From positions 6,015,001-6,079,000 of the forward strand of contig NZ_CP134771.1 of NCBI RefSeq assembly GCF_031880315.1: 64,000 nt of DNA. The letters are read 5' to 3'. Position 1 is the first letter of the stretch. Every line of letters starts with the position of its first letter. Made by a program: the position numbers and the translations under genes. The stretch is from Pseudomonas baltica. Lineage in GTDB: Bacteria; Pseudomonadota; Gammaproteobacteria; Pseudomonadales; Pseudomonadaceae. Positions 43,811-61,827 of this stretch are shown piece after piece. The notes under the pieces were generated by a model. The model saw only the letters and a program-made list of their open reading frames with translations, was not told where the DNA came from and did not search any database.

Positions 43811-44160
43811 GCACCTCCCCACCGCGACAAAGCGATCGCCGCGACAGCATCGAGTTGCTCAAGGGCATGGGCCAGCGCTACCGCCGCAGCGGTCAGGCGC
43901 AGCGGGCGCTGGTGATGCTGTTGATCGCCGCCCACTTGGCCCCGGACGACGGGCCACTGCTGCACAGCCTGGCACTGGCCTTTACCGACAGCGGTGACAG
44001 CGCACGGGCACTCGCCGCACTGGATCGTCTGCAGCGGTTGGAGGGCGAGTCGGCGCCGCTGTTGCTGTTGCGCAGCCGCGCGTTGTGGCGAGCCGCCCAG
44101 CGTGATGAAGCACGGCAATGCTTCAAGCATTACCTGGCCTTGCGCAAGGTGGCGGCATGA
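43807..44160 (+). CDS. TPR-like T3SS chaperone, YscY/Y4yS-like
   Basis: 117 residues forming about three TPR helices pairs: QRALVMLLIAAHLAPDDGPLL, ARALAALDRLQRLEGESAPLLL and the C-terminal RDEARQCFKHYLALRK, which follows the pattern of the YscY end (ARHAYQHYLELK). YscY-type proteins chaperone YscX and contact SctV, whose gene starts in the ATGA at the stop. Cytoplasmic. Assignment by fold, size and order. Confidence 0.6.
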   Translation: MSTSPPRQSDRRDSIELLKGMGQRYRRSGQAQRALVMLLIAAHLAPDDGPLLHSLALAFTDSGDSARALAALDRLQRLEGESAPLLLLRSRALWRAAQRDEARQCFKHYLALRKVAA

Positions 44161-46343
44161 TGCTCGTCGCCCGCCTCAATGCCTTGGCGCGCATCGCCGC
44201 GCAACGCAGCGACGTGATCATTGTCGCTTTCATGCTCATGGCCATCGCCATGATGATCATCCCGCTGCCCACCTATCTGGTGGACAGCCTGATCGGCGTC
44301 AACATCGCTCTGAGCGTGCTGATTCTGGTCGTTGCGTTTTATATCCATCACTCGGTGGAGTTCTCGGCATTGCCGCCGCTGATTCTGCTCAGCACCTTGT
44401 TCCGCCTGTCGCTGTCGATCACCACTACGCGCCTGATCCTGCTGGACGGCAATGCCGGGCACATCGTCAAGGCGTTCGGCGACTTCGTCATCGCCGGCCA
44501 GGTGGTGGTCGGCCTGGTGGTGTTTCTGATCATCACCGTGGCGCAGTTCGTGGTCATCACCAAAGGCGCCGAGCGGGTCGCCGAGGTGGCCGCACGCTTC
44601 ACCCTGGACGCCATGCCCGGCAAGCAGATGAGCATCGACAACGACCTGCGCAACGGCGATATCGACCAGGCCGAGGCCCGTCGCCGGCGTTCGCGCCTTG
44701 AGCGCGAAAGCCAGATGTTCGGCGCCATGGACGGTGCCATGAAGTTCGTCAAGGGCGATGCCATCGCCGGTTTGGTGATCCTCGCGGTCAACCTGCTGGG
44801 CGGCATGTTGATCGGCATGCTCGAACGCGACATGCCCTTCGCTCAGGCCGTGCACACCTATTCGTTGCTGACCGTCGGCGACGGCCTGATCGCGCAGATT
44901 CCGGCGCTGCTGATTTCGGTCGCCGCCGGTACGGTGGTCACCCGGGTCAACAGCGAGGGCACCGAGCACGACCTGGGCACCGAGATCGTCCGCCAGCTGG
45001 GCACCAGCCACCGGGCATTGTCGCTGACCGCCTTGATTCTGCTGGGCGTGGCCTTTCTGCCGGGCTTCCCTGCAGCGGTGTTCCTCAGCCTGGCGGCCAT
45101 ACTCGGCGGCTCGGCCTTCGTGCTTTGGCGCCGCGAGCGCCGCACCCGCGAGCTGGCCCTCGATCCTGTGGGAGCACCGCTTACTGGCGAAGACGCCAGC
45201 ACAGAAGGCCTCACCACGCAGGCCGAACACTCGACCGACGGCCTCAATCCAGCCGATGCGTTCCCACGCCCGCTGCACAGCCGTGTGCTCCTGACACTTG
45301 GTACGACCCTGGCCGCCGAAGCGCCGCCGCAACCCCTGCGCCAACGCATCGAAGCGTTGTGCCACGACTTGCGCGGTGAGCTGGGCATCGAGGTGCCTGT
45401 CCCTGACCTGTGCATCGATCGCCAACAGGGCGTTGATACCTACAGCGTCGAACTCGAAGGCGTGCCGGTCCGTGAAGGCGAGTTGCCGGCCGGGCACCTG
45501 CTGCTGCAGGACGATCCCGTGCATGCGCAATTGCTCGACCTCGACTGCCTGCCAGCACCTGCCCCCCTAGGCAAAGAGCAAGGGCAATGGCTGCCACGCG
45601 AACAACAGGCGCGCCTTGACGAGGCTGGCATCGGCTATCTGACCACCGAGGAAGTCCTGGTGGCCCTGCTTGAACGCACCTTGCGTCGTTACGCGGCCGA
45701 CTTCCTCGGCATCCAGGAAACCCGCGTGTTGCTCGAACGGGTCGAAGCCGAGTACCCGGAGCTGGTCAAGGAGGCGTTGCGTACCGTGCCCTTGCAGCGT
45801 GTTGCCGAGGCCTGGCGGCAGTTGGTGGCCGAAGGCGTTTCGCTACGCAATCAACGCGCATTGCTGGAGGCGATGGTCGAGTGGGGCAGCCGCGAAGCCG
45901 ATCCTGGGCGCTTGGCCGAATACTTGCGCGCGGCCTTGGCGCGGCAGATCAGCCATCAACATGCCGATCGCCAGCGGGTGATCAGCGCCTTCGTGCTGGC
46001 GCCTGCCCTGGAAGAACAACTGCGCAATGCCGTGCGCCGCCAGGACAAAGGCCGCGAAGCGATATTGCCCGATGACCTGGGCCGCGCCTTGCTGACCCAA
46101 CTGCGCGGCCTCTGCGGCCTGCGCCAGGATGACGACCGCAGCGTGCTGCTCAGCCATCCCGAATTGCGCCGTGCACTGCGGCGCCTGACCGTGCGCGGCG
46201 AGCTGGAACTGGCGGTGCTGTCGTTCCGCGAACTGGCCGGCGAATACAACCTGCAAGCGGTCGGCACCTTGCATCCCGTCGATACCTCTTCGCGCCGGGC
46301 CGGCAATGGCGGCGCAGTCACTAGCCTGGCGAGTGCCTCATGA
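44157..46343 (+). CDS. sctV: T3SS export gate protein SctV (RhcV/HrcV)
   Basis: 728-residue major export-gate component. The N-terminal half has about eight helices with the FHIPEP-family signatures LIGVNIALSVLILVVAFYIHHSVEFSALPPLILLSTLFRLSLSITTTRLIL and PGKQMSIDNDLRNGDIDQAEARRRR. The cytoplasmic half forms the nonameric ring that receives substrates. Start ATG 44157 overlaps the previous stop. The linker at about residues 337-347 (DPVGAPLTGEDAS) is encoded by a REP-like sequence, an insertion relative to the family. Confidence 0.95.
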   Translation: MMLVARLNALARIAAQRSDVIIVAFMLMAIAMMIIPLPTYLVDSLIGVNIALSVLILVVAFYIHHSVEFSALPPLILLSTLFRLSLSITTTRLILLDGNAGHIVKAFGDFVIAGQVVVGLVVFLIITVAQFVVITKGAERVAEVAARFTLDAMPGKQMSIDNDLRNGDIDQAEARRRRSRLERESQMFGAMDGAMKFVKGDAIAGLVILAVNLLGGMLIGMLERDMPFAQAVHTYSLLTVGDGLIAQIPALLISVAAGTVVTRVNSEGTEHDLGTEIVRQLGTSHRALSLTALILLGVAFLPGFPAAVFLSLAAILGGSAFVLWRRERRTRELALDPVGAPLTGEDASTEGLTTQAEHSTDGLNPADAFPRPLHSRVLLTLGTTLAAEAPPQPLRQRIEALCHDLRGELGIEVPVPDLCIDRQQGVDTYSVELEGVPVREGELPAGHLLLQDDPVHAQLLDLDCLPAPAPLGKEQGQWLPREQQARLDEAGIGYLTTEEVLVALLERTLRRYAADFLGIQETRVLLERVEAEYPELVKEALRTVPLQRVAEAWRQLVAEGVSLRNQRALLEAMVEWGSREADPGRLAEYLRAALARQISHQHADRQRVISAFVLAPALEEQLRNAVRRQDKGREAILPDDLGRALLTQLRGLCGLRQDDDRSVLLSHPELRRALRRLTVRGELELAVLSFRELAGEYNLQAVGTLHPVDTSSRRAGNGGAVTSLASAS
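45167..45196 (+). repeat. REP-like element inside sctV
   Basis: TGTGGGAGC...GGCGAAGACGC with a diverged centre. It encodes the linker between the membrane and cytoplasmic domains of SctV in frame. Confidence 0.6.
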
Positions 46344-47647
46344 TTCGATTGCGTATTCCGATGTTCTGTCTGTGGCTATTGGCGTTAACGGCCAGCGCTG
46401 AAGCCTTGGGCGACAACATTGCCAAAGGCGCCCGCGGCACCCTCGACCTGGCCACCGGCGAGGGGCGCATCCTGCATTTCGCTGCGCCGGTGGAATCGGT
46501 GCTGGTGGCGGACCCGAACATCGCTGATCTGCAGGTGGTGTCGCCCGGGGTGATCTATATTTTTGGCAAAAATGCCGGGCAGACCAGCCTGATTGCTCTG
46601 GGCGACAACGGTGAGCAGACCGCCGCTCTGACCCTGGCGGTGGGCGCTGGCGCCCAGGCCGTGAGCCGGCCGCTGCAGAACCTGCACCCCGGCAGCCAGA
46701 CTCAGGTGAGTGCCGCTGGTAACCGCCTGGTCGCGCGTGGCAAGGTCAAGGACGTCGGCGAGGCCACGGACTTGAACGCCTTGCTGAGCACCGAAGGGCA
46801 GGGCCTGCAGAGCGCGATCAACAGCGCCGAATACGCTGGCTCCGCCCAGGTCAATATCCGCGTGCGCTTCGCCGAAGTCTCGCGCAACGAGCTGCTGCGT
46901 TACGGCGTCAACTGGAACGCGATGTTCAACAACGGCACGTTTTCATTCGGCCTGTTGACGGGCGGCGCGCTGGCCGCCGATGCCGCCAGCGGCGCCTCCA
47001 ATGTGATCAGCGCCGGCCTGGCCTCGGGCAACGTCAATATCGATGCGATGCTCGAAGCCTTGCAGAGCAACGGCGTGCTGGAGGTGCTGGCCGAGCCCAA
47101 TATCACGGCGATGACCGGGCAGACGGCGAGCTTTCTGGCCGGTGGCGAAGTCCCGGTGCCGGTGCCGGTCAATCGCGACCTGGTGGGGGTCGAGTACAAG
47201 CCCTATGGTGTGTCGCTGCTGTTCAGCCCGACCCTGCTGCCCAACGGTCGCATCGCCTTGCAGGTGCGCCCCGAGGTGAGCAGCGTGGTTACCACCAATG
47301 CCGCCACGGTCAATGGTTACCTGGTGCCTTCGTTTCGCGTGCGCCGTGCCGACACCCGAGTCGAGGTGGGCAGCGGCCAGACCTTCGCCATCGCCGGGCT
47401 GTTCCAGCGCGACAGCTCCCAGGACATCGACAAGGTGCCGATGCTCGGCGACATGCCGATCCTCGGCAATCTGTTTCGCTCCAAACGCTTCCAGCGTAAC
47501 GAAACCGAACTGGTGATCCTGATTACCCCGTATCTGGTCGAGCCGGTGCGCGGTCGCACCTTGGCCACGCCACTGGATGCGCAGCCGACCACCACCGCCG
47601 CCGCCGGTCCGCGCAGCGGTGGAGCGTTCGGGTTCTATCTAAATTGA
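46340..47647 (+). CDS. sctC2: Secretin channel half, RhcC2/CpaC-like (SctC C-terminal part)
   Basis: 435 residues. Signal peptide (LWLLALTASAEA), then a pilus-formation-type N-domain (GARGTLDLATGEGRILHFAAPVESVLVADPNIADLQVVSP) and BON-like region, as in CpaC/RcpA of Tad pili, then the secretin barrel domain (VLAEPNITAMTGQTASFLAGGEVPVPVP; GVSLLFSPTLLPNGRIALQVRPEVS; VPMLGDMPILGNLFRSKRFQRNETELVILITPYLV). It forms the outer-membrane pore. It lacks the T3SS N0/N1 domains, which are on a separate gene at 49031. It overlaps sctV by 4 bp. Confidence 0.88.
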   Translation: MIRLRIPMFCLWLLALTASAEALGDNIAKGARGTLDLATGEGRILHFAAPVESVLVADPNIADLQVVSPGVIYIFGKNAGQTSLIALGDNGEQTAALTLAVGAGAQAVSRPLQNLHPGSQTQVSAAGNRLVARGKVKDVGEATDLNALLSTEGQGLQSAINSAEYAGSAQVNIRVRFAEVSRNELLRYGVNWNAMFNNGTFSFGLLTGGALAADAASGASNVISAGLASGNVNIDAMLEALQSNGVLEVLAEPNITAMTGQTASFLAGGEVPVPVPVNRDLVGVEYKPYGVSLLFSPTLLPNGRIALQVRPEVSSVVTTNAATVNGYLVPSFRVRRADTRVEVGSGQTFAIAGLFQRDSSQDIDKVPMLGDMPILGNLFRSKRFQRNETELVILITPYLVEPVRGRTLATPLDAQPTTTAAAGPRSGGAFGFYLN

Positions 47648-47658
47648 GGGGCCATCCG

Positions 47659-48938: not shown

Positions 48939-49030
48939 GAACAGCACTCTTGGACGCAACGAAGCGGCCATTTTATCGGCTTGGCAGGCAATAGCGACCC
49001 CTATGTTCAGGAATGTCAGGGGGCGGCTCG

Positions 49031-49932: not shown

Positions 49933-50388
49933 ATGACAGTCAGCCTTGCTGCTGCACCCGCGGCCGCTGCCGTGCCACCGGCGGCGTCGACCGGCGCCCC
50001 TGGGGCATCGCAAAATCTCTTCGAGCACATGGCCGAAACCGCCAAGGGTGCGCCGCAAGGGGCGAGTCCGACGCAGCTGGGCGACAGCCTGATGGAGCGC
50101 CTCAATGGCTTTATCGATCGCCAGCGCACCTTCTCGCAGCAGGCCGATTCGCTGACGCGCAGCAGTGCGCCCAGCGCCAGTCCGGCAACCACTGCTGGTG
50201 CTGCAAGCTCGCCCGCGCCGGTCACTGTCGCTCAGGGCCAACCCACAGCGCGGGTCGGCGATGGCCAGATCGACCAGATCGTTCATTCGCTGGGGCGCAT
50301 GTTCGACTACTCCATCGAAACTCAGATGGTGGTGCGCGGCGCCACGCAGATTTCCGGCTCCGCCAACACCTTGATCAAGGGGCAATGA
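49933..50388 (+). CDS. sctI: T3SS inner rod protein SctI (NolB-like)
   Basis: 151 residues. A long Ala/Pro/Ser-rich N-terminal half, then a conserved C-terminal helix (LGRMFDYSIETQMVVRGATQISGSANTLIKGQ) that matches the SctI/YscI/HrpB family end, which forms the rod between export gate and needle. No cysteine. It precedes sctJ with ATGA overlap, as NolB precedes RhcJ. Confidence 0.8.
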   Translation: MTVSLAAAPAAAAVPPAASTGAPGASQNLFEHMAETAKGAPQGASPTQLGDSLMERLNGFIDRQRTFSQQADSLTRSSAPSASPATTAGAASSPAPVTVAQGQPTARVGDGQIDQIVHSLGRMFDYSIETQMVVRGATQISGSANTLIKGQ

Positions 50389-51164
50389 CCATGACCCGCC
50401 GCGCCTTGCGCCTGACCCTGATGGTGGTCTTGACCAGCCTGCTGCAGGCCTGCGACATCGACCTCTACACTAACCTCGGCGAGCGCGATGCCAACGCCAT
50501 GCTCGCGGTGTTGCTGCGCGATGGCATCCCGGCACAACGCAAGATTCAGGACAACGGTCAGCTCAAGCTGGTGGTCGACGAAAAGCGCTTCGCCCAGGCC
50601 ATGGCGGTGCTCGATGACGCCGGTCTGCCGGCGCAGAGTTTTTCCAACATGGGCGAAGTGTTCAAGGGCAATGGCCTGGTTTCCTCGCCGGTGCAGGAGC
50701 GCGCGCAGATGGTCTTTGCCTTGAGCGAGGAACTGTCCCATAGCGTGTCCGAGGTCGATGGGATTCTGTCCGCCCGGGTGCACGTGGTGCTGCCGGACAA
50801 CGACTTGCTCAAGCGAGTGATCTCGCCATCCTCCGCCTCGGTGCTGGTGCGTTATGACCCGCAGACCGACATCAATGTGCTGGTGCCGCAGATCAAGACA
50901 CTGATCGCCAACGGTATTTCCGGACTCGATTACGACCGCGTGTCGGTTACCGCAATCAAGGCACGGATGCCCGCCAGCGGCGGCACGCAGCCGGTCATGG
51001 CGAGTTTCATGGGCCTGTGGATGCTCGAGCAGGACGTCAGCCGGGCGCGCTGGTTGTTCGGTGTACTGCTGGTGTTGGCGTTGGGTCTGGGCGGCTTTGT
51101 CGGTTGGCAGGCGTGGTCGCGGCGCCGCGCGCAGACGCTGTATGCACTGGAGCAGACCCCATGA
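50385..51164 (+). CDS. sctJ: T3SS inner-membrane ring lipoprotein SctJ (RhcJ/NolT)
   Basis: 259-residue YscJ/FliF-family lipoprotein. Lipobox LLQAC with Cys23; ring domains begin DLYTNLGERDANAMLAVLLRDGIPAQR, with RVHVVLPDNDLLKRVISPSSASVLVRYDPQTD in the second domain; a C-terminal transmembrane helix (WLFGVLLVLALGLGGFVGW) precedes RRRAQ. Forms the 24-mer ring with SctD. Coupled by ATGA to both neighbours. Confidence 0.95.
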   Translation: MTMTRRALRLTLMVVLTSLLQACDIDLYTNLGERDANAMLAVLLRDGIPAQRKIQDNGQLKLVVDEKRFAQAMAVLDDAGLPAQSFSNMGEVFKGNGLVSSPVQERAQMVFALSEELSHSVSEVDGILSARVHVVLPDNDLLKRVISPSSASVLVRYDPQTDINVLVPQIKTLIANGISGLDYDRVSVTAIKARMPASGGTQPVMASFMGLWMLEQDVSRARWLFGVLLVLALGLGGFVGWQAWSRRRAQTLYALEQTP

Positions 51165-51988
51165 ACCACCTGCTGGCCTGGCGGGCCTTGACCGCACAGC
51201 CGCTGCGCTTCGTCGATCACCAGTCACTGCGCGGCTGTTTCGCCCAGTTGCTCTCGGATCGGACCATTGGCGAGATGACCGATTCGGCACGCTTCAGCGC
51301 TCGCTTGCTAGCGCTGTTGATGGCGCACTTCCAGCTCGCGCCCCTGGCGCCACTGACGCCCGCCAGTGAAGACGACTTGCCGGTATTGCTGTTGCCACCC
51401 ACTGCCTTCAGCCGTTTGCCGCGCCTTTGCGGGGCGGTCTGGCATGCCGCCGCGCTGAGCCGTGAGGTACGCGGGGCGGTTGTCTGCGAGTGGCGCGAGC
51501 AACTGGGCGCCGAGGTGTTCAACCTGGCGCTGCAACACCGTGAATGGGCCGGCGCGGCGAATCTGCTGCACAGCCCGTCGGCGTTGCTGGTGGCCATCGA
51601 TCGCGACGGCCAGGCCTGCGTGGCCGATTGGTTTGCCGCGCAGCCTGCGCCGTTGCAGGCGTGGTTGCAGTTGCGCCTGCCACAGGCGGCGCTGGACTCG
51701 CAAACTTCGCGGGCAGAGCCTGCTCCCACAGTGTTGCCCAACGCTGTGGGAGATTCTGTGGCTGTGGGCAAGCAGCATCGGCCTCTTCGCGGGCAAGCCT
51801 CGCTCCCACAGCACGAGCAGCACCTGAGCCATACACCCGTCGGAGCAAGGCTCGCCCGCGAAGGGGCCGTCAAGGCGCGCAACGAAGCCCTGGACCCTCA
51901 ACGTATCGAGCTGGTCCGCCGCCTGGCCGTCGTACTCCAGGCGACCCTCGATCAACCCTCCATGGAGCCTGCCGATGTCCCTGCCTGA
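51161..51988 (+). CDS. sctK: T3SS sorting-platform protein SctK (NolU-like) with REP-derived segment
   Basis: 275 residues, cytoplasmic linker between SctD and SctQ in the sorting platform. Family-like features: MNHLLAWRALTAQPLRFVDHQSL at the start and the LPRLCGAVWHAAALSREVRGAVV middle. The N-terminal 180 residues are SctK-like. Residues about 182-237 are encoded by several REP copies in both orientations, and the final helix (RIELVRRLAVVLQATLDQP) resumes the family. The reading frame stays open through all copies. Start 51161 overlaps the sctJ stop. Confidence 0.8.
   Translation: MNHLLAWRALTAQPLRFVDHQSLRGCFAQLLSDRTIGEMTDSARFSARLLALLMAHFQLAPLAPLTPASEDDLPVLLLPPTAFSRLPRLCGAVWHAAALSREVRGAVVCEWREQLGAEVFNLALQHREWAGAANLLHSPSALLVAIDRDGQACVADWFAAQPAPLQAWLQLRLPQAALDSQTSRAEPAPTVLPNAVGDSVAVGKQHRPLRGQASLPQHEQHLSHTPVGARLAREGAVKARNEALDPQRIELVRRLAVVLQATLDQPSMEPADVPA
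51706..51871. repeat. REP cluster inside sctK
   Basis: At least three REP units: reverse orientation at 51706-51731 (TTCGCGGGCAGAGCCTGCTC...) and 51784-51811, and forward orientation at 51841-51871, with a half-unit TGTGGGAGATTCTGTGG between. Total about 166 bp, translated in frame. Confidence 0.78.
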
Positions 51989-52592
51989 TGACCTCGCCAA
52001 CAGCCTGCCGCCGCAGCCCGGCGTCCGTATCCTGCGAGCCGCCCAGACGGCGCAGTGGATCGATGGCTACGCCTTCGTACAAGCCGCCGAGCAGCACGCG
52101 CGACGTCTGCGCGACGACAGCGAAGCGACCCTGCGCGAGGCGCGCAGCGAGGCCTTCGAGCAGGCCCGTCGGGAGGGGGACGAACAGGTCGCCGCCTTGC
52201 TTGCACGCACCGCCACCCGCGCGGATGCCTGGCTGTTGTCCCTGCAGCCGGCGATCGCGCAACTGGCCGTGGCCATCGCCCGGGAGATCATTGGCGAGCT
52301 GCCGAGCGACGAGCGCGTCGTGCGTTGCACCCGCCAGGCCTTGTCAGCGTTTCGCCACGACCAAACCTTGACCTTGCAGGTGCCCCGCGCCGAGGTCGAC
52401 GCGTTGCGCCGCCGCCTGGACCAGGATGGGCTCGATCATATTGGTGTGGCCGCCGACGACCAGTTGGCGCCAGGCGACGCATGCCTGTGCAGCCCGGTCG
52501 GTCGCGTCGAGCTGGGTGTGGAGGCGCAGTTGCAGCATATCCGCGCCAGCTTGCTTGGGCATGACGAGCAGGGCGGGGAAGGACGCCCATGA
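51975..52592 (+). CDS. sctL: T3SS stator protein SctL (RhcL/NolV)
   Basis: 205 residues of the FliH/YscL family that links the ATPase SctN to SctQ. Long charged helix (AEQHARRLRDDSEATLREARSEAFEQARREGDEQVAALLARTA) followed by the conserved C-terminal domain with LAVAIAREIIGELPSDERVVRCTRQALSAF and VGRVELGVEAQLQHIR. Starts within the last 14 bases of sctK and overlaps sctN by 4 bp. Confidence 0.9.
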   Translation: MSLPDDLANSLPPQPGVRILRAAQTAQWIDGYAFVQAAEQHARRLRDDSEATLREARSEAFEQARREGDEQVAALLARTATRADAWLLSLQPAIAQLAVAIAREIIGELPSDERVVRCTRQALSAFRHDQTLTLQVPRAEVDALRRRLDQDGLDHIGVAADDQLAPGDACLCSPVGRVELGVEAQLQHIRASLLGHDEQGGEGRP

Positions 52593-53920: not shown

Positions 53921-53956
53921 TGTCCGTTGCCAGGAGCTATTGATGGAGACGCCGCC

Positions 53957-54424
53957 ATGAACGCCAACCAATTGCGGGAATTACGTGCGTTGCGGGTGCT
54001 GCGTGAGCAGCGTGTGACCCGAGAGCTGGCGGCCCAGCAGCAGCTGTGTCGCGAAGCCGAGAGCGAGCGTGATGCCGCTCGCCAGCGCCTTTTCGAGCAT
54101 CGCCAGGCATTGGCCGGCGAAGCCGAGGCGTTGTATGGAAAATTCTCCGAAGGCCTGTCGGTAAAGGCCTGGCAAAACGCCCAGGAGCATTTGCACAGCC
54201 TCGAACAGGACCGCCACGCCCTGCAGGCCGACCTCGGTGATATCGAACAGGGCCTGCAGCTCCAGCACCAACAGCGTGACGCCTTGAGCCAGCAGCGCCT
54301 GCGTCGCCAACAGCAGGCCGACCAGTGCCAGGACCTGCTGGACCGGCATCTGCAAGACCAGCGCCGCGCCGTCGAGCTACGCGATGACGAATTGCCCGAC
54401 GCTGCACTGGGAGCACCGCGATGA
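53957..54424 (+). CDS. sctO: T3SS stalk protein SctO (RhcO/YscO-like)
   Basis: 155-residue protein that is nearly all coiled coil, rich in Arg, Gln, Glu and Ala (RELRALRVLREQRVTRELAAQQQLCREAESERDAARQRL). This is the FliJ/YscO type that sits in the ATPase ring and contacts SctV. Position between sctN and sctQ fits. Start 53957 with GGAG upstream. It overlaps sctQ by 4 bp; there is no separate sctP gene between them. Confidence 0.82.
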   Translation: MNANQLRELRALRVLREQRVTRELAAQQQLCREAESERDAARQRLFEHRQALAGEAEALYGKFSEGLSVKAWQNAQEHLHSLEQDRHALQADLGDIEQGLQLQHQQRDALSQQRLRRQQQADQCQDLLDRHLQDQRRAVELRDDELPDAALGAPR

Positions 54425-55752
54425 ATCAGGAATTGCCACAGCGATCACGACAGGCAAGGGCCGCTGCGCCAGGCAGTTGGATACCGACAGAGTCTGCCGA
54501 TGTTCGCCCATTGCAGGTGCCAGAGTGGCCGTCAGGGCCTGCCGAGATTACATTGCACAATCGCCTGCACTTGCGTCGCCAGCCGTGGCAAGGCGAGGTG
54601 ATGGGGCAGTCACTCAGGGTCCAGTGGGGCAAAGACGAGACCGTGCTCGACGGTGATCATCTGCTATTGCTGTGCGCGTTGGGCGAGGCTCGGTTCGGCT
54701 TGAGCCTACCCAGATCAGTGGCTCGGCAATTGGGGGATATGCCAGAGATTTTCGCGAGCAGTGAAGGCCTCTTCGCGGGCAAGCCTTGCTCCCACAGTGC
54801 ACGGCCTGCCAGCGGTGTAGAGTCGGGGGGTATGCCGGAGATTTTCGCGGGCAGTGAAGGTGTCTTCGCGGGCAAGCCTTGCTCCCACAGTGCACGGCCT
54901 GCCAGCGGCGTGGAGTCGGGGGGCGATCCTGGCTCCCACAATGCACGGTCTGCCAGCGGCGTAGAGCCGTGGGAGCAAGGCTTGCCCGCGAAGGGGCCGC
55001 AGCATTCACCGCAGCGCCCCAGCCCCGTCGACCTCGCCACCAGCCTGCTGATCGAGTACACCTGGCTGCCACTGCTCGAATCCTTGGAAACGTTGCTTGA
55101 GCAGCCGCTACGCATCCTCCCCAGCGCGTCTTTCGAGGCGCCCTTGCGGTTAGATCTGACCCTGCGACTGGGCGACCACGCTGCGCAATCCGCTTGCCTG
55201 GTCATGGACGCAAGCAGCGCCGCCTTGATTGTCGACGTCCTCGACCGCTGCTGCCCCAGGGCTCCTCTGGCCTTCGATACGCTGCCCGTCGCCGCACAGC
55301 TGAACGCCGGTGACGCGCCGTTGACCGTCGCCGAGTGGCAGAGCCTGCAGCCGGGCGATGTGGTCATGCTCGACCAACCTGCCGATGCCGACCCCAGCCT
55401 GGTGATCGGCGATCGGTTGCACGCGTCGGTGCAGGTCGACGGCGGCCGTTTACGGTTACGCCAGCCGCTGAAAACAGTCCCTTTTCCAGTGAACAGGAAC
55501 CACCCCATGAGTACCCTCCAAGCAACGGACGGCACCCTCGACAGCCTGCCCCTGACGCTCACCTGCCAACTGGGCAGCCATGAATTGACCCTCGCGCAAT
55601 TGCGGGAGATGGGCCCCGGCAGTGTCCTGCCGCTGACCACCGACAGCGAACGGGTCGAGTTGATAATCAATGGCCGCCGCGTCGGTCATGGCGAGCTGGT
55701 GCGCATCGGCAGCGGCCTGGGCGTACGCCTGCTGAGCCTGGCCACTCCATGA
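54421..55752 (+). CDS. sctQ: T3SS sorting-platform protein SctQ with in-frame REP tandem repeat
   Basis: 443 residues. N-terminal domain (1-105), REP-derived insert (about 106-192), then a middle domain (PVDLATSLLIEYTWLPLLESLETLLEQPLRI) and a C-terminal SpoA domain (about 365-443: LPLTLTCQLGSHELTLAQLREMGPGSVLPL...VEL IINGRRVGHGELVRI). The insert holds two identical-frame 31-residue repeats (M107-G137 and M138-G168). An internal start at 55507 could give a separate SpoA product. It pods with SctK and SctL as the cytoplasmic sorting platform. Confidence 0.88.
   Translation: MNQELPQRSRQARAAAPGSWIPTESADVRPLQVPEWPSGPAEITLHNRLHLRRQPWQGEVMGQSLRVQWGKDETVLDGDHLLLLCALGEARFGLSLPRSVARQLGDMPEIFASSEGLFAGKPCSHSARPASGVESGGMPEIFAGSEGVFAGKPCSHSARPASGVESGGDPGSHNARSASGVEPWEQGLPAKGPQHSPQRPSPVDLATSLLIEYTWLPLLESLETLLEQPLRILPSASFEAPLRLDLTLRLGDHAAQSACLVMDASSAALIVDVLDRCCPRAPLAFDTLPVAAQLNAGDAPLTVAEWQSLQPGDVVMLDQPADADPSLVIGDRLHASVQVDGGRLRLRQPLKTVPFPVNRNHPMSTLQATDGTLDSLPLTLTCQLGSHELTLAQLREMGPGSVLPLTTDSERVELIINGRRVGHGELVRIGSGLGVRLLSLATP
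54738..54996. repeat. 93-bp in-frame tandem repeat built around REPs, inside sctQ
   Basis: Unit 1 at 54738-54830 and unit 2 at 54831-54923 differ at only a few bases; a partial third copy lies at 54931-54966 and an inverted REP at 54967-54996 ends the array. Each full unit contains one reverse-oriented REP (54771-54797 and 54864-54890, exactly 93 bp apart). 93 is a multiple of 3, so duplication kept the frame. Confidence 0.88.
55507..55752 (+). CDS. Candidate internal translation product SctQ-C (SpoA domain)
   Basis: An in-frame ATG at codon 363 of sctQ is preceded by ACAGGAACC about 8 bases upstream and would give an 81-residue protein that is just the SpoA domain (MSTLQATDGTLDSLPLTLTC...). 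SctQ homologs YscQ, SsaQ and Spa33 are known to make such a short form, which joins the full-length protein in the pod. Confidence 0.5.
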   Translation: MSTLQATDGTLDSLPLTLTCQLGSHELTLAQLREMGPGSVLPLTTDSERVELIINGRRVGHGELVRIGSGLGVRLLSLATP

Positions 55753-56402
55753 ACGGCTATCAGCCCAATCTGATCGAAATCATTCTGGTGGTGGCGACCA
55801 TCGGCCTGATTCCGCTGGCCGTGGTCACCCTCACCGGGTTCATGAAAATCTCCGTGGTGCTGTTCCTCATCCGTAACGCCTTGGGCGTGCAACAGACGCC
55901 GCCCAACCTGGTGCTGTATGGCATCGCGTTGATCCTGTCGGTGTACGTGACCACGCCGCTGATTGGCGAGATGTATCACCAGGTGCAGGGTCGGCAGCTG
56001 GACATGCAGAACGTCGAACAGCTCAAAGAGTTAGGCGATGCCTTGCGTCCGCCTTTACAGGCGCATCTATCGCGCTTTGCCAACGAAAGCGAGCGCGGCT
56101 TTTTCGTGCAGGCCACCGAGACCCTCTGGTCGCCTGAAGCCCGCGCCGATTTGCGTGACGACGATCTGGTGGTGCTGGTGCCGGCGTTCGTCAGTTCGGA
56201 GCTGACCCGCGCCTTCGAGATCGGCTTTCTGCTGTACATCCCGTTTCTGGTGGTGGACCTGCTGGTGGCCAATGTGTTGATGGCCATGGGCATGTCGATG
56301 GTCTCGCCGACGCTGATTTCCATACCATTGAAAATATTCCTGTTCGTGGCAATCAGCGGCTGGTCGCGATTGATGCACGGGCTCATTCTTAGCTACGGGT
56401 GA
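55749..56402 (+). CDS. sctR: T3SS export gate protein SctR (RhcR/HrcR)
   Basis: 217-residue FliP-family membrane protein. Signatures: PLAVVTLTGFMKISVVLFLIRNALGVQQTPPNLVLYGIALILS near the N-terminus and LTRAFEIGFLLYIPFLVVDLLVANVLMAMGMSMVSPTLISIPLKIFLFVAI in the second half. Five copies assemble with SctS and SctT into the export pore. Overlaps sctQ by 4 bp. Confidence 0.96.
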   Translation: MNGYQPNLIEIILVVATIGLIPLAVVTLTGFMKISVVLFLIRNALGVQQTPPNLVLYGIALILSVYVTTPLIGEMYHQVQGRQLDMQNVEQLKELGDALRPPLQAHLSRFANESERGFFVQATETLWSPEARADLRDDDLVVLVPAFVSSELTRAFEIGFLLYIPFLVVDLLVANVLMAMGMSMVSPTLISIPLKIFLFVAISGWSRLMHGLILSYG

Positions 56403-56406
56403 CACC

Positions 56407-56676
56407 ATGGGGCAGGACGTTTTTCTTTCGTTGATGAAACAGGCGCTGATGACCGTGCTGCTGTTGTCGGCACCGGCGTTGGCGGTGGCCATTATCGTCG
56501 GCTTGAGTGTCGGCCTGTTGCAGGCGCTCACGCAGATCCAGGACCAGACCCTGCCGCAGGTGGTCAAGCTGGTGGCGGTCCTGCTGGTGATCGTCTTCGT
56601 CGGGCCGCTGTTGGCCGGGCAGGTCGCCGCGCTGGGCAGCCAGGTGCTCGACAATTTTGCGCTGTGGACGCGCTGA
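56407..56676 (+). CDS. sctS: T3SS export gate protein SctS (RhcS/HrcS)
   Basis: 89-residue FliQ-family protein with two helices (TVLLLSAPALAVAIIVGLSVGLLQALTQIQDQTLPQVVKLVAVLLVIVF). Small pore component winding around SctR/SctT. Four bases after the sctR stop. Confidence 0.95.
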   Translation: MGQDVFLSLMKQALMTVLLLSAPALAVAIIVGLSVGLLQALTQIQDQTLPQVVKLVAVLLVIVFVGPLLAGQVAALGSQVLDNFALWTR

Positions 56677-56682
56677 GCCCCG

Positions 56683-57498
56683 ATGGATATCGGCTTGCCC
56701 AGTGCTTTCGTCGAGTTGGCCTACCCGACCATCAGCTCAGCGTCGCTGGCGGCCAGCCGCGCCATGGGCCTGGTGATGGTCACCCCGGCGTTCAATCGTC
56801 TGGGGCTCACCGGGATGATCCGGACCTGTGTGGCGTTGGCGGTGTCGGTGCCGATGCTGCTGCCGGTGTTCCAGGCCTTCACCGCCATGCCCGAGCACAA
56901 CGGGTTTTTCATCGCCGGGCTGATGGTCAAGGAGTTTCTCATTGGCGTGTTGATCGGGCTGCTGTTCGGCATTCCGTTCTGGGCGGCGGAAATGGCCGGC
57001 GAACTGGTAGACCTGCAACGGGGATCGACCATGCAGCAACTTCTCGACCCGAGTGGCTCGGGGGAGTCGAGTGTGATGGCGACCTTGTTGACGGTAATGC
57101 TGATCACCCTGTTTTTCATGTCCGGGGGGTTCATCATGATGGTCGGCGGCTACTACCACAGCTATCAGTTGTGGCCGGTGACCGCCTTCACGCCGTTGTT
57201 CGCCAGCTCGGCGTTGATGGCGATTCTGTCGATTCTCGACCAGGTGATGCGCATTGGCGTGTTGATGGTCTCGCCGCTGTTGATCGCCATGCTGATTACG
57301 GACCTAATGCTCGCGTACCTGTCGCGCATGGCGCCCAACTTCCACATCTTCGATTTGTCGCTGCCGGTCAAGAACCTGTTTTTCTCGGTGCTGATGGTGA
57401 TTTACATCGGCTTCTTGATCCCGGTGATGCTCGACCAGCTGGCGGCCTTTCGCGGTACCGTCGAGGTGCTCAAGACGCTGTCGGGCGTGGCCGGATGA
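56683..57498 (+). CDS. sctT: T3SS export gate protein SctT (RhcT/HrcT)
   Basis: 271-residue FliR-family membrane protein with about seven hydrophobic segments; key stretches ASRAMGLVMVTPAFNRLGLTGMIRTCVALAVSVPMLLPVF, KEFLIGVLIGLLFGIPFWAAEMAGELVDLQRGSTM and LGMHIFDLSLPVKNLFF-like FHIFDLSLPVKNLFFSVLMVIYIGFL. Single copy in the pore complex. Confidence 0.95.
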   Translation: MDIGLPSAFVELAYPTISSASLAASRAMGLVMVTPAFNRLGLTGMIRTCVALAVSVPMLLPVFQAFTAMPEHNGFFIAGLMVKEFLIGVLIGLLFGIPFWAAEMAGELVDLQRGSTMQQLLDPSGSGESSVMATLLTVMLITLFFMSGGFIMMVGGYYHSYQLWPVTAFTPLFASSALMAILSILDQVMRIGVLMVSPLLIAMLITDLMLAYLSRMAPNFHIFDLSLPVKNLFFSVLMVIYIGFLIPVMLDQLAAFRGTVEVLKTLSGVAG

Positions 57499-57510: not shown

Positions 57511-58557
57511 ATGGCTGATACCAGCGAAGAGAAATCCCAGCCGGCCACCGACAAGAAGCTGCGCGAGGCCCGCACCAAGGGCCAGGTCGCCAAGAGTCAG
57601 GACTTGGTCTCGGCCATGGTCATCCTCTTGTGCACGTTGTGCATCGCCCTGCTGGTGGCCCGCGCCCAGGCCCAGGTGACGGCGCTGGTCGATCTGGTCG
57701 CGCAGCTGTATATCGAGCCGTTCGCGGGTGTCTGGCCGCGGGTCATCGACCTGGCCGAGCAGATTCTGCTCGACCTGACGCTGCCAGTGGTGGCGGTCAC
57801 GGGAGGGGCGGTGATCCTCACCAATCTGATCACCATGAAGGGCGTGGTGTTCGCCGTCGAACCGATCAAGCCGGACTTCAAACGGATCAATCCTGGCGAA
57901 GGCTTCAAGCGCCTGTTCGCGATGCGCAACTTCGTCGAGTGCATCAAGGGGCTGGTCAAGGTCAGCCTGTTGGGCCTGGCGTTTTACGTGGTCGGGCGTC
58001 AGGCGTTGCAGGCACTGATGGAGGCCTCGCGGTGTGGCGCGGGCTGCATCGAATCGACCTTTTACGCGGTGCTCAAGCCGCTTGTGTTTACCGTGCTGGC
58101 GGCGTTTCTGTTACTCGGCGCGGTGGACGTGATGATGCAGCGCTGGTTGTTCGGCCGGGACATGAAGATGACCCACAGCGAACAGAAACGCGAACGCAAG
58201 GACACTGACGGCGACCCGTTGATCAAGCGCGAGCGGCGCCGTCAGCGCCAGGAAATGCAGGCCTTCGCGACCCAGCTGGGCCTGGGGCGCGCCTCATTGA
58301 TGATCGGCGACGGCAGCGGTTGGCTGGTGGGGCTGCGCTATGTACGCGGCGAAACCCCGGTGCCGGTGGTGGTGTTCCGGGTCGAGCCGACCCAGGCCCA
58401 GGCCAGCTTGCTGGAGGCTACCGGGCTGGGGATCGCCATCGCTGCTGACCAGGCGCTGGCAGCGGATATCGCTCGGCGCGCGGTGGCCGGTGATCCGATC
58501 CCGGACCACTGTTTTCAGGCGGTGGCCGACTTGCTGGTGGCGGCGCGCTTGATCTAG
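57511..58557 (+). CDS. sctU: T3SS switch protein SctU lacking the NPTH autocleavage motif
   Basis: 348-residue FlhB/YscU-family protein. Four-helix membrane domain with EEKSQPATDKKLREARTKGQVAKSQDL at the start and GVVFAVEPIKPDFKRINPGEGFKRLFAMRNFVE in the loop; linker RDMKMTHSEQKRERKDTDGDPLIKRERRRRQRQ-like; cytoplasmic domain GLRYVRGETPVPVV. At residues 267-270, where family members have the self-cleaving N-P-T-H, this protein has D-G-S-G. The surrounding residues are well kept, so this is not a frameshift. It probably cannot autocleave (inference). Its stop overlaps the convergent regulator gene by 4 bp. Confidence 0.94.
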   Translation: MADTSEEKSQPATDKKLREARTKGQVAKSQDLVSAMVILLCTLCIALLVARAQAQVTALVDLVAQLYIEPFAGVWPRVIDLAEQILLDLTLPVVAVTGGAVILTNLITMKGVVFAVEPIKPDFKRINPGEGFKRLFAMRNFVECIKGLVKVSLLGLAFYVVGRQALQALMEASRCGAGCIESTFYAVLKPLVFTVLAAFLLLGAVDVMMQRWLFGRDMKMTHSEQKRERKDTDGDPLIKRERRRQRQEMQAFATQLGLGRASLMIGDGSGWLVGLRYVRGETPVPVVVFRVEPTQAQASLLEATGLGIAIAADQALAADIARRAVAGDPIPDHCFQAVADLLVAARLI

Positions 58558-61460
58558 CCTGCCAGGTTGCCCTGAAGGCGGCGCAGCGGCAGCGGCTCGT
58601 CGACGCGCTGCGTGTCGGCGGCAATGCGCGTGGTCCAGAAACTCAGGCCATGGCGTTGTGCGCATTCGTCGGCCTGGGCGAGCAAGCCTTGCAAGCGCTC
58701 GGTACTGGCCGCCGGGCCTTGGCGGCGCAGCAGTTGCGCCTGCACGCGCAGCAATTCCGGCACGTACCATAACTCCTCGCGGCTGCGGACCAGCGTGAGG
58801 GTTTCTTCGAGCATTTCCAGCCCCAGCTCCTCCAGCCCCAGCAGCGCCAAGCCTTGCGCGTACTCGCAGCGCAACAGGCTGTAGAGCGGCGAATGGCCCT
58901 GGTCGCGCAGCTGGTTAAGGGCTTCGCCGAGCTGCGGCACGCCAATCTGTGGTGCGCCGTCGCGAATCGCCAGAATGCTGTCGAAACAGCGCGCCAGTTG
59001 CCGCCACAAGTGCAGCTCGCGGCCTTGTGAACTGTCCTTGAGCAGGGTCATCAATTGCCGGGTCTTGTGCAGGCTGCCCACCATCAGGGTGATAGGTATG
59101 GCGCTCAGGCACAGGGTGTACCACAGGCTGGCGGGGTGGCAGAGGTTGATGGCGTCCTGGACGTTGGCGTCGACGGTCAGCAGCGCTTGGCCGATATTGC
59201 CTTCCAGCAGTTGCACCTGGGCCAGCAGCGAGCGCGTGGCGATGCGCTGGTCGAAATGCATCTCCACCAGGTGCGAGCGGGCGCAAAGCGGTGAGCTCAG
59301 CGCTTGCGCCACGGCCTGACGAGCACCGGCAAGGTCGGCCATGTAGAACAACGGTACGGCGCGCATCCGCATCCCGAGCATCTGCCGATCGCCCTGCAAC
59401 GGATTACGCGCATGGGTCAAGAACTGGTCGGCCAGGGTCAGCGCCAGGCGATGCTGGTTGGTGCAGATACGGTCGTTCCACAGGCCCCAGATCGCGCGCA
59501 GGGCGCTGTCGGTGTCACCCAATGCGTCGGCGTCGATACGCACCTGGGCCCAGGCTTCGCGCATCTGGCTGCTGGCCCCATAGGTGAGCATCAGCAAGCT
59601 GGCGCTGACGGTCAGCAGGCGCATGCGTTGGCGTGCCGTGACCGGGGGCGCCAGTGGTGCATTGCTCAGGCCTTGCTTGACCCACTCATGGCATTCGCCG
59701 ATCAGCGACAAACGCAACAACAGCGGCGCACTCAACAAAGTCAGCTCGACCGCCAATGGCCGATCGCCGACGTCGGCATAGGCCCACTGCAGTGCGCCGC
59801 GCAGGGTGTCGATCTCCACGGCATATTGGTTGAGCCAGTGCTCGGGGCGCAGACGGTCCAACTGTTGGTTGGCACGGTGCATGAGCTTCAGCGCCCACAG
59901 GGCGTGGCGATGGAATACCAGGCGGCCGGTGCCTGCCTCATCGAGTTTCTGCACGGCATAGAGGCGAGTCGTTTCGAGCAACCGATAGCGTTTGCCATGG
60001 GGGTGTTCGGCCAGGCTCAGCAGCGATTTGTCGATCAGATTTTCGAGCAGTGGCAGGGCATCGCGCACATCGTCCAGGCCGAGATCGATGACGGCCTTGA
60101 CCGCCTCCAGGCTGAAGGAACCCTTGAACACTGCCAGTTGTTGCAGCAGTGCCTGCTCATCACTGCCGAGCATGGCGTAGGTCCAGTCCAGCGCAGCACT
60201 CAACGAGCGCTGGCGCGCCAGTGCGGTGCGCCGGCCAGTCATCTGCAAGCGAAAGCTGCCGTCCAGCAATCCGACCAGATCTCGCAGGCCGAACGCCCGC
60301 ACTCGCGCCGCCGCCAGTTCGATGGCCAGCGGGTTGCCATCGAGCTTGCGGCAGATACAGGCGACATCGTCGAGGTCGCCAGCGCTGAAGACGACATCGG
60401 CATCGAAGCCGCGCACCCGTTGCATGAACAGCTGTAGTGCCGGGTATTGCTCGACGTCCTCGACACGCAGTCGCTGGTGCTCGGCAGGGACCGGCAAGGG
60501 CGCGAGTTCATGCACGTACTCGCAGGCAGCGCGCAGCGGCTCACGGCTGGTGACCAGCACATGGATGCGCGGGTTATGCAGCAGCAGCGTTTCTACCGCC
60601 ATTGCGGTGGGCTCAAGTACATGCTCGGCGTTGTCGAGCACCAGCAGCAGGTGGCTGTCGCCCAGGGTGTCGGCCAGCTCCTGCAAGGGCGTCGCGGTTT
60701 CGGTCGCGATGCCCAGCGCGCAGGCGATCATGCCCTGCACCGGTTGCGGGGCGTCGATAGGGGCCAGGTCGATAAAGCGTACGCCATCGGCAAAGTACGG
60801 CTGCAAGCGGTCGGCGAGGGCCAGGGCGACAGTGGTCTTGCCCATGCCTGCGGCGCCCGTGAGCGTCAGCAGTCGATGCACCTGGAGCTGCGTGCTCAGG
60901 GCCTCGAGCAACGCTTCACGGCCGACGGCGGTGACCGCGCTGGGCATGCCTTGGGCGGTGCTGTTTGTGATCGTCAGGGGCGCCAAAGGCTGCGGCATGT
61001 TCGTGATGGCGCTGGGCGACAGTATCGGGGTGGCGGGCGCCGCAGCCATTGGCGCATCGACTGCAGCCGCCGGCGGCGCGCTGGGCGTTGCACGTAGAGG
61101 CGCGCTGAAGCGGTAACCGCGCCCTGGCACGGTGCTGATACAGCAGAAGTTGCCCTCGGCGCCAAGCACTCGCCGAAGGCTGACAATCTGCGCGCGCAAA
61201 TTGCACTCCTCGACTACCGCCCGTGGCCAGGCCAGCGCCAGCAATTCGTGCTTTTCGAACAGATCGCCCGGGCGGCTGGCCAGGGCGACCAGCAGAGCCA
61301 TGGCGCGGCTGCCGAGGTTCACCGGCTGACCGTCGCGCAACAACAGATGCTGGCGCGAGTACAGCGCAAAGGGGCCGAAACACAAGGGGGCTTCGGCCAG
61401 GTCCGTGGCCGGCGCGACGAGGTCGACGGACGTTGCAGAGGTCGGCGTACGGGCATTCAT
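58554..61460 (-). CDS. Large winged-helix/ATPase transcriptional regulator, T3SS-adjacent
   Basis: 968 residues. N-terminal OmpR/CadC-type winged helix at about 26-121 (FGPFALYSRQHLLLRDGQPVNLGSRAMALLVALA...ISTVPGRGYRFSAPL), Ala/Pro linker, NB-ARC/AAA ATPase with Walker A GAAGMGKTT (202-210) and Walker B LLLVLDNAEHVL, then a long helical TPR-like region. This STAND-type architecture is found in many ligand-gated regulators. It faces the T3SS operon and overlaps sctU by 4 bp; no other regulator is in the cluster, so it is the likely T3SS controller. Effector unknown. Start 61460 gives the canonical winged-helix N-terminus. Confidence 0.85.
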   Translation of the reverse strand: MNARTPTSATSVDLVAPATDLAEAPLCFGPFALYSRQHLLLRDGQPVNLGSRAMALLVALASRPGDLFEKHELLALAWPRAVVEECNLRAQIVSLRRVLGAEGNFCCISTVPGRGYRFSAPLRATPSAPPAAAVDAPMAAAPATPILSPSAITNMPQPLAPLTITNSTAQGMPSAVTAVGREALLEALSTQLQVHRLLTLTGAAGMGKTTVALALADRLQPYFADGVRFIDLAPIDAPQPVQGMIACALGIATETATPLQELADTLGDSHLLLVLDNAEHVLEPTAMAVETLLLHNPRIHVLVTSREPLRAACEYVHELAPLPVPAEHQRLRVEDVEQYPALQLFMQRVRGFDADVVFSAGDLDDVACICRKLDGNPLAIELAAARVRAFGLRDLVGLLDGSFRLQMTGRRTALARQRSLSAALDWTYAMLGSDEQALLQQLAVFKGSFSLEAVKAVIDLGLDDVRDALPLLENLIDKSLLSLAEHPHGKRYRLLETTRLYAVQKLDEAGTGRLVFHRHALWALKLMHRANQQLDRLRPEHWLNQYAVEIDTLRGALQWAYADVGDRPLAVELTLLSAPLLLRLSLIGECHEWVKQGLSNAPLAPPVTARQRMRLLTVSASLLMLTYGASSQMREAWAQVRIDADALGDTDSALRAIWGLWNDRICTNQHRLALTLADQFLTHARNPLQGDRQMLGMRMRAVPLFYMADLAGARQAVAQALSSPLCARSHLVEMHFDQRIATRSLLAQVQLLEGNIGQALLTVDANVQDAINLCHPASLWYTLCLSAIPITLMVGSLHKTRQLMTLLKDSSQGRELHLWRQLARCFDSILAIRDGAPQIGVPQLGEALNQLRDQGHSPLYSLLRCEYAQGLALLGLEELGLEMLEETLTLVRSREELWYVPELLRVQAQLLRRQGPAASTERLQGLLAQADECAQRHGLSFWTTRIAADTQRVDEPLPLRRLQGNLAG

Positions 61461-61827
61461 GGTGAAAAGCCTTCTGTCCTGGCGCCGGGCGTTCACTATC
61501 GAACAGGCGCTCTTTTTGGTCCTGCGGTCGGGTGACCGTGCTTGCGGTTTGCGCAGTGCACCATCGATGGGCAAGCGTTGCGCAGTGGTGCTGGAAATCC
61601 CTAGCGGATAAAAGGGTCAAGTGAAAAGTTGTTTAAATTTATAGCAGGTTATGTGCCATTTGTTACAAATAAGCAGGGGGTGGTTGAGCATTGCGCTCTG
61701 CGGGCTGCAAATCTGAGTGGCCTGTCGCAAATGCAGCGAGGGGGCTTGCCCCCGATGAACTTTCAGACGTGGTGGTGTCTGCAAAATCCATCGGGCGCAA
61801 GCCCCCTCGCTTCACACGAGTGTCACC
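61461..61827. other. Intergenic region upstream of the regulator, with REP pair
   Basis: 367 bp holding the regulator promoter (AT-rich near 61620-61680 with TTTAAATTTATAGCAGG) and a long inverted REP pair at 61736-61810. I saw no full TTTCACA-N3-TTTCACA site here, only single half-like GTGAAAA motifs at 61462 and 61621. No gene seen. Confidence 0.5.
61736..61810. repeat. Inverted REP pair (second REP type)
   Basis: Arms of 22 bp, GCGAGGGGGCTTGCCCCC(GATG) and (CATC)GGGCGCAAGCCCCCTCGC, with a 31-bp spacer. This GGGGGCTTG-type palindrome differs from the TGTGGGAGC type inside the T3SS genes. It probably also terminates the MFS gene (stop 61828). Confidence 0.8.

What the first reader, a model, noticed from the sequence alone, without database searches (positions are those of the whole stretch)
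57511..58557. SctU without NPTH in a T3SS that also lacks a SctP ruler gene
Residues 267-270 of SctU are D-G-S-G where T3SS and flagellar switch proteins have the self-cleaving N-P-T-H; the flanks (ASLMIG before; WLVGLRYVRGETPVPVV after) align well, so the motif is replaced, not misread. No gene between sctO and sctQ, or elsewhere in the cluster, looks like the SctP needle-length ruler, and no SctW-type gatekeeper was seen. Both partners of the standard early-to-late substrate switch seem to be gone together in an otherwise complete machine. Either this T3SS controls needle length and substrate order another way, or it is locked in one mode.
Basis: partly seen in the sequence, partly recalled or inferred. 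Interest (0 to 1): 0.82.

Follow-up and report, generated by a model that had tools for sequence, protein, structure and literature searches.

The report
Secretion switch lacking its self-cut site
A protein-injection machine of a Pseudomonas has a switch protein without the self-cutting site usually held to be shared by all such proteins, and every relative sampled from the rhizobial family of these machines lacks it too, so the standard switch may not be universal.

Summary
SctU (57511-58557) has DGSG where NPTH is expected, sctO and sctQ overlap so no sctP lies between them, and no SctW (HrpJ) match is in the genome. It is not a quirk of this strain. The cluster is rhizobial-type (Rhc-II, 'T3SS-2'), and 0 of 359 SctU proteins sampled from that family have NPTH, or even N-P near the site. 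The classic Rhc-I machine of Sinorhizobium NGR234 lacks it. On a tree the change sits on one branch (100/100). In Rhc-III (R. etli type) the whole C-terminal switch domain is missing in 8 of 8 genes read. Controls keep the motif: 12 of 12 SctU of HrpJ-bearing Pseudomonas systems, 11 of them from genomes that also carry T3SS-2. Missing SctP was already published for this family (Gazi 2012; Tampakaki 2014). The NPTH loss I did not find in the held library, and one paper calls NPTH conserved in all homologs. SctU is under purifying selection where tested. Best reading: a secretion family that works without SctU self-cleavage and without a recognisable ruler. That the window's own machine works is inferred.

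The parts
57511..58557 (+). sctU (rhcU/hrcIIU), 348 aa, export-gate switch protein without NPTH
   Evidence: trees
58309..58320 (+). loop residues 267-270 (DGSG) at the place of NPTH
   Evidence: alignments; variability
58291..58554 (+). C-terminal cytoplasmic domain (residues 261-348), predicted fold as in YscU/EscU; absent in Rhc-III relatives
   Evidence: model (block pLDDT 84-94 here; whole model mean 76.9, pTM 0.42), Foldseek; Rhc-III
53957..54424 (+). sctO (start uncertain; ORF opens at 53927)
   Evidence: position; HrpB7 weak (E 0.044); relatives
54421..55752 (+). sctQ, overlaps sctO by 4 bp, so no gene between them; carries a repeat-derived in-frame insert
44160..46343 (+). sctV export gate (ORF opens at 44118)
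   Evidence: PF00771
43807..44160 (+). sctY-like TPR chaperone
   Evidence: NF052415 68.6 bits, just under its cut-off of 70
43436..43810 (+). sctX candidate by gene order and size only; no family or PDB match
42478..43425 (+). sctD with Y4yQ-type C-terminal domain
   Evidence: PF23893, PF16697
42193..42417 (+). small conserved ORF (start uncertain), possible needle or pilin subunit
   Evidence: matched in 19 of 20 Pseudomonas loci (the twentieth is cut short); product inferred
46340..47647 (+). secretin part 2 (RhcC2-like)
   Evidence: PF00263
49013..49642 (+). secretin part 1 (RhcC1/NolW-like)
   Evidence: N0-domain match under its cut-off (21 of 27 bits); relatives
49933..50388 (+). sctI-like inner rod candidate, no family match
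   Evidence: position; conservation
50385..51164 (+). sctJ
   Evidence: PF01514
51164..51988 (+). sctK-like, with repeat-derived stretch near its end
   Evidence: YscK weak (E 0.071)
51975..52592 (+). sctL
   Evidence: PF06635
52589..53920 (+). sctN ATPase
   Evidence: PF00006 and T3SS_ATPase_C
55749..56402 (+). sctR
   Evidence: named by position and by matches in annotated relatives; 88-94% identity in 19 of 20 Pseudomonas loci
56407..56676 (+). sctS
56683..57498 (+). sctT
38154..41663 (-). large HrpK-like putative translocator, 1169 aa
   Evidence: position and size as in PMC3574062 (section 21); no Pfam match over cut-off
58554..61574 (-). regulator: Trans_reg_C plus AAA ATPase
   Evidence: compare PSPPH_2539 in PMC3574062

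Best explanation
The window carries a rhizobial-type (Rhc-II) type III secretion system. Its SctU cannot cut itself by the known asparagine cyclisation, because the asparagine and proline are gone. The loss most simply happened once, at the base of the sampled Rhc clade, and the machines stayed under selection. Inferred mechanism: the uncut C-terminal domain stays at the gate in one constitutive state; no SctP ruler measures needle or pilus length (the motif to which SctP binds in Xanthomonas is gone too); early and late export are set by other means, most simply by SctV with an SctX/SctY-type pair and by timed expression. In Rhc-III the C-terminal domain was lost altogether. Shown: absence of the motif in all proteins sampled, its single place on the tree, conservation of the rest, the truncation in eight genes, no detectable SctP or SctW in this genome. 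Inferred: no cleavage in the cell, and how substrate order is kept.
For: 0 of 359 related SctU proteins (the window's plus 358 retrieved; the best 120 listed of 341, 418 and 367 matches) have NPTH, and none has N-P within six columns. NGR234 pNGR234a RhcU reads RGTA there. Presence and absence are parted by one branch on a maximum-likelihood tree of 86 rows with the loop columns left out, support 100/100 (88 rows). In 116 clusters G257, R276 and P285 are (almost) invariant while 267-270 each hold 11-17 different residues. dN/dS 0.04-0.25 in seven Pseudomonas SctU pairs (C-terminal domain alone 0.05-0.31) and 0.18-0.19 in two pairs of truncated Rhc-III genes (some dS above 1). Rhc-III: 8 of 8 genes read lack the domain, out of 49 listed plasmid records at 46.9% identity or more; no other SctU/FlhB on three of those replicons. 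Same-genus control: 12 of 12 SctU of HrpJ-bearing systems have NPTH, and in the five such clusters looked at an extra ORF lies between the sctO- and sctQ-position genes. HpaC binds the NPTH motif, and N264A stops translocon and effector but not HrpB2 export in Xanthomonas (PMC3040844, passages), so loss of motif and of ruler fit together.
Against: No protein or secretion data for the window's strain. Only Rhc-I machines are reported functional (PMC3973906); Rhc-II and Rhc-III are unproven. SctP is known for very weak sequence similarity (PMC3459982), so not finding it is weak evidence: of the five SctP-position genes of the control clusters only one passed a curated cut-off, three reached 17-18 bits with the FliK model and one matched nothing. 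Cleavage elsewhere is possible: Spa40 N257A gave another, larger fragment (PMC3542141). In non-cleavable point mutants late export fails, so the family must have compensated in an unknown way. The C-terminal domain is still under purifying selection in the Pseudomonas pairs, so it is not idle there. The loop is not wholly free: 268 and 270 are often glycine, and 268-270 rank only 49th, 26th and 33rd in variability of 124 columns, 267 fifth. The tree's count cannot by itself tell gain from loss; loss rests on the FlhB-like outgroup rows. Rhc-III and Paracoccus are long branches. SctX is assigned by position only.
Confidence: 0.72

Rival explanations
1. SctU is still cut, at another site in or near the loop or by a protease, and the switch works as usual.
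For: A Spa40 asparagine mutant shows another fragment (PMC3542141, passages). The site lies in a predicted turn between two strands.
Against: No conserved residue pair in the loop that could serve (11-17 different residues at each of 267-270); N occurs anywhere in 267-271 in 82 of 359; the eight Rhc-III genes read lack the whole domain.
Confidence: 0.13
2. A ruler or gatekeeper exists but has diverged beyond recognition, and only the cleavage is dispensable.
For: SctP proteins are very divergent (PMC3459982), and the models catch SctP-position genes poorly; unassigned genes exist in the cluster (43436-43810, 47644-48120, 49699-49917); Tampakaki 2014 names this option (PMC3973906).
Against: sctO overlaps sctQ in the window and in 18 of 18 Pseudomonas loci where sctO was found, of 20 examined; no SctP or SctW match among the cluster proteins scanned; Gazi 2012 reports no hrpP/yscP gene in any Rhc subgroup.
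Confidence: 0.25
3. The machine is a decaying relic or is locked in early mode.
For: Gazi 2012 notes a low expression level of T3SS-2 in minimal medium (PMC3574062, section 15; the same abstract calls it constitutively expressed); repeat-derived inserts in sctQ and sctK of this strain; the motif loss resembles early-locked mutants.
Against: The genes from sctD to sctU are found in 19 of 20 Pseudomonas loci apart from sctO in two and orf124 in one; the twentieth locus is cut short. dN/dS is well below 1, also in the C-terminal domain. NGR234 Rhc-I with the same loss is reported functional.
Confidence: 0.12
4. Recent mutation or sequencing error in one strain.
For: None found.
Against: Two close relatives (97% and 99% identical) have the same DGSG, and the other relatives sampled lack NPTH too.
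Confidence: 0.01

Closest known systems
Rhc-II / T3SS-2 of Pseudomonas syringae and of Sinorhizobium NGR234 pNGR234b (Gazi et al. 2012, PMC3574062)
   Same: Core gene content, split secretin, SctY-like TPR protein, no hrpP/yscP gene; as in P. syringae also a HrpK-like gene and a PhoB-like plus AAA regulator. NGR234 pNGR234b SctU also lacks NPTH (L054)
   Different: The paper does not mention NPTH (0 occurrences); the window strain has repeat-derived inserts in sctQ and sctK
Rhc-I of Sinorhizobium NGR234 pNGR234a and of Bradyrhizobium
   Same: SctU without NPTH (RGTA; TGPA and others), split secretin, no SctP identified (PMC3973906)
   Different: Reported functional; NopA/NopB surface appendages; no hrpK ortholog according to PMC3574062
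Rhc-III of Rhizobium etli
   Same: No NPTH; no hrpP/yscP gene and HrpK-like genes according to PMC3574062
   Different: SctU lacks the whole C-terminal domain (8 of 8 read); no hrpO/yscO-like gene according to PMC3574062
YscU/HrcU/EscU/FlhB self-cleaving switch proteins
   Same: Family and fold (PF01312; best Foldseek matches are YscU and EscU C-terminal domains)
   Different: NPTH self-cleavage site absent

Membership tests
SctU/FlhB export-gate family | Bac_export_2 domain over the full length | tested here: met
   PF01312 E 8.8e-74, residues 6-342
SctU/FlhB export-gate family | C-terminal cytoplasmic domain with the YscU/EscU fold | tested here: met
   predicted model, (for example 3bzs TMt 0.86, rmsd 1.4 over 88 columns)
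SctU/FlhB export-gate family | NPTH self-cleavage motif | tested here: not met
SctU/FlhB export-gate family | self-cleavage in the cell | not testable with these tools
   needs immunoblot or mass spectrometry
Rhc (rhizobial) T3SS family | SctU falls inside the Rhc clade | tested here: met
Rhc (rhizobial) T3SS family | secretin split over two genes | tested here: met
   46340-47647 and 49013-49642; the second by a sub-threshold N0 match and by relatives
Rhc (rhizobial) T3SS family | no hrpP/yscP gene between sctO and sctQ | tested here: met
Rhc-II subgroup | HrpK-like protein gene | tested here: inconclusive
   38154-41663 by position and size; no Pfam match
Ysc/Hrp-type T3SS with SctU-SctP switch | SctP ruler | tested here: inconclusive
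   not found by place or by models, but the models are weak
Ysc/Hrp-type T3SS with SctU-SctP switch | SctW/HrpJ gatekeeper | tested here: not met
   the model works in relatives, 20 of 27 genomes over cut-off

The most novel reading that the evidence does not exclude
A whole family of type III secretion systems (Rhc), one branch of it reported functional, secretes in order without any SctU cleavage and without a ruler or gatekeeper of the known kinds; Rhc-III even dispenses with the complete switch domain. The self-cleaving switch would then be a feature of most, not all, injectisomes, and the Rhc machines use a different logic for ordering their substrates.
Probability: 0.6. Interest if true: 0.85.

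Novelty: new variant of a known kind. Interest (0 to 1): 0.72.

Why it matters
[quoted passage not shown] A natural family without the motif, one branch of it without the domain, would show that the model does not cover all machines, and it offers a laboratory strain (Sinorhizobium NGR234) in which ordered secretion without the switch can be tested directly. It also joins two separate observations, missing ruler and missing cleavage site, into one evolutionary state.

Tried and rejected
Recent mutation: rejected. SctP elsewhere in the genome: the two FliK-type hits over cut-off lie near flhB. Of the six sub-threshold hits and the two, I examined five stretches with Pfam: a histidine kinase, an SMC-type protein (its frame also holds the second hit), one with a weak HamA match, two with no match. 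The hits in the 7803-aa and 4398-aa frames were not examined. A new motif in place of NPTH: rejected, DGSG is in 2 of 359 and the residues vary. A compensating signature GLRYVRGETPVP after the loop: rejected as a family novelty, since NPTH-bearing L051 has IRYVKGETPLP. Best Foldseek hits being non-cleavable mutants: not used as evidence, because only uncut chains are continuous. orf 43436-43810 as SctX: no profile match in the PDB. C-terminal domain as a separate gene in Rhc-III: nothing on three replicons (which had no positive control) nor convincingly near the gene (best E 0.07 at a distant place). Internal repeats of the HrpK-like protein as a ruler: blastp finds no self-match at E 1e-3 besides the identity.

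Dropped rows: L053 (Halomonas, match in two overlapping pieces). For the trees, proteins 66% or more identical to a chosen one and those under 330 aa except Rhc-III were left out, then 13 named rows were added back; L107 (same gene as L051) was left out; also L099 and P0234 (long branches). Beta-Rhc of Cupriavidus taiwanensis and named Chlamydia-, SPI-1- and SPI-2-type SctU were not sampled. Several genomes appear under two loci (for example L012 and L025).

Full report
What is there. The ORF at 57511-58557 is SctU of a type III secretion cluster running from the HrpK-like gene (38154) to a regulator (61574). The genome (6.63 Mb, one contig) shows only one other member of the family, with NPTH. 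Pfam and NCBIfam name much of the machine: SctD with a Y4yQ-type C-terminus, SctV, the secretin, SctJ, SctL, SctN, SctQ and SctU, and, just under its cut-off, an SctY-like chaperone; SctR, SctS and SctT follow from matches in annotated relatives. sctO and sctQ overlap by four bases, so there is no sctP in its usual place. HrpJ/SctW is not found in the genome.

It is a family trait. A tblastn of plasmid records put Rhizobium, Halomonas, Phyllobacterium and Sinorhizobium proteins nearest, at 43-53%. In the genus 28 of 298 genomes, own included, have a match at E 1e-50: 27 of the T3SS-2 kind and one (G108) of another kind. Of 56 SctU/FlhB rows, 52 belong to this family and none has NPTH; the four others all have it. 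Some genomes stand there twice. In a wider set, three protein searches gave 358 proteins besides the window's (only the best 120 of 341, 418 and 367 matches were listed). None of the 359 has NPTH or N-P within six columns of the site. They include many Bradyrhizobium and Mesorhizobium proteins of Rhc-I. The classical RhcU of NGR234 pNGR234a reads RGTA. DGSG is in 2 of 359, so it is not a motif. In 116 clusters each of 267-270 holds 11-17 different residues; 267 ranks fifth in variability of 124 columns, 268-270 only 49th, 26th and 33rd, with glycine common at 268 and 270; G257, R276 and P285 are almost invariant.

One event. On a tree of 88 rows and on a careful tree of 86 rows without the loop columns, presence and absence of NPTH are parted by one branch with full support. 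Rooted on three FlhB-like rows this is one loss at the base of the Rhc clade; the count alone does not give the direction. Outside the clade, of the 30 best TIGR01404 matches from 299 genomes 29 have NPTH and one NPVH.

The domain itself can go. Rhc-III SctU (R. etli p42d and others) stops after the linker that precedes the cleavage site. I read eight genes from Rhizobium and Sinorhizobium, down to 47% identity to the first: 265-283 aa counted from the matched start (the longest is annotated 272 aa), no C-terminal domain in any. The plasmid collection lists 49 such records at 46.9% identity or more; 41 were not read, but five of these end at residue 253 when matched with a full-length Rhc-I protein (H81-H85). 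No second SctU/FlhB is on three of the replicons.

Controls in the same genus. HrpJ was found over its cut-off in 20 of 27 genomes (19 of the 26 T3SS-2 genomes, and G108). On shared contigs these hits lie more than 1.8 Mb from the T3SS-2 sctU; the others are on other contigs. The remaining seven T3SS-2 genomes and the window's own have no HrpJ over cut-off. For 12 of the 23 HrpJ hits over the cut-off I fetched the neighbourhood and recovered SctU: NPTH in 12 of 12; 11 come from genomes that also carry T3SS-2. In the five clusters looked at, an extra ORF of 150-353 aa lies between the sctO- and sctQ-position genes. One of the five passes a YscP cut-off (L107), three more have only sub-threshold FliK-type matches, one matches nothing; the sctO-position gene was scanned in three of the five. 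Rhizobia show the same for the motif: a non-Rhc system with sctW in R. gallicum and one in B. japonicum keep NPTH. So in these controls the motif goes by system, not by genome.

Not decay. In 20 Pseudomonas loci (one cut short) the core gene order is kept; SctO was found in 18 of them and overlaps sctQ in all 18, by 4 bp in 17. In the two others 352 and 192 bp lie between sctN and sctQ. The HrpK-like gene was matched over most of its length in five of the 20 stretches, weakly in five, not in ten, some of which may not reach it. dN/dS of SctU is 0.04-0.25 in seven Pseudomonas pairs and 0.18-0.19 in two Rhc-III pairs; the C-terminal domain alone gives 0.05-0.31; some dS exceed 1; Rhc-I was not tested. 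The predicted C-terminal domain matches YscU and EscU domains.

How it may work. In Xanthomonas the SctP-type protein HpaC binds the NPTH motif, and N264A stops translocon and effector export but not HrpB2 (PMC3040844, passages); in Shigella, Spa40 N257A cannot switch (PMC3542141, passages). A family without the motif that still exports late proteins must have decoupled the gate from cleavage. The cluster has an SctY-like chaperone and, just upstream, a possible SctX (the X-Y-V order of Yersinia is recalled); SctX-SctY engages SctV and a regulatory role in early export has been indicated (PMC10233624, passages). I propose, as inference, that order is set at SctV and by expression, and that pilus length is not measured. 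[quoted passage not shown]

What was known. No hrpP/yscP gene in all Rhc subgroups: Gazi 2012 (PMC3574062, outline, passages and two sections). No SctP identified in rhizobia: Tampakaki 2014 (PMC3973906, passages). For NPTH the searches 'NPTH+RhcU', 'NPTH+Bradyrhizobium' and 'Rhizobium etli+type III secretion+SctU+truncated' gave no paper; 'NPTH+symbio' gave 5 and 'RhcU+cleav' 19, of which I read passages of PMC10970691, PMC6865838 and PMC3973906, none reporting the loss; wider searches were seen as listings, partly capped. Subscription journals are not held. [quoted passage not shown] Abby and Rocha (PMC3459982, passages) do not mention NPTH. Recalled, not from a call: that cleavage as such was argued to be dispensable in one Salmonella study, and the name REP for the repeats.

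Against my reading. No experiment on any Rhc SctU was found. SctP models are weak (PMC3459982). The C-terminal domain is still selected in the Pseudomonas pairs. The Rhc-III and Paracoccus branches are long. This strain's sctQ and sctK carry repeat-derived inserts, so its own machine might be impaired even if the family works.

Noticed in passing
window 54772-54992 and 51786-51862: REP-like repeats (TTCGCGGGCAAGCCTTGCTCCCAC and near copies) lie in frame inside sctQ (three exact copies) and sctK (two copies with one and two mismatches). SctQ is 443 aa against 320-373 in 19 of 20 relatives; the two closest relatives, L003 and L004, align with SctQ over its whole length.
   Followed up: partly
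L067, L070, L095, L153-L157: Rhc-III SctU genes of Rhizobium and Sinorhizobium end before the switch domain.
   Followed up: yes
window 43436-44160: Gene order orf124-SctY-SctV resembles yscX-yscY-yscV (recalled); orf124 may be an unrecognised SctX.
   Followed up: partly
L079, L080, L081, L083, L094: Gaps of 157-570 bp between sctN and sctO in some Pseudomonas loci, perhaps further repeats.
   Followed up: no
L073 (Paracoccus sanguinis plasmid): A long-branched SctU with GTRE at the site, within a plasmid-borne T3SS cluster.
   Followed up: no
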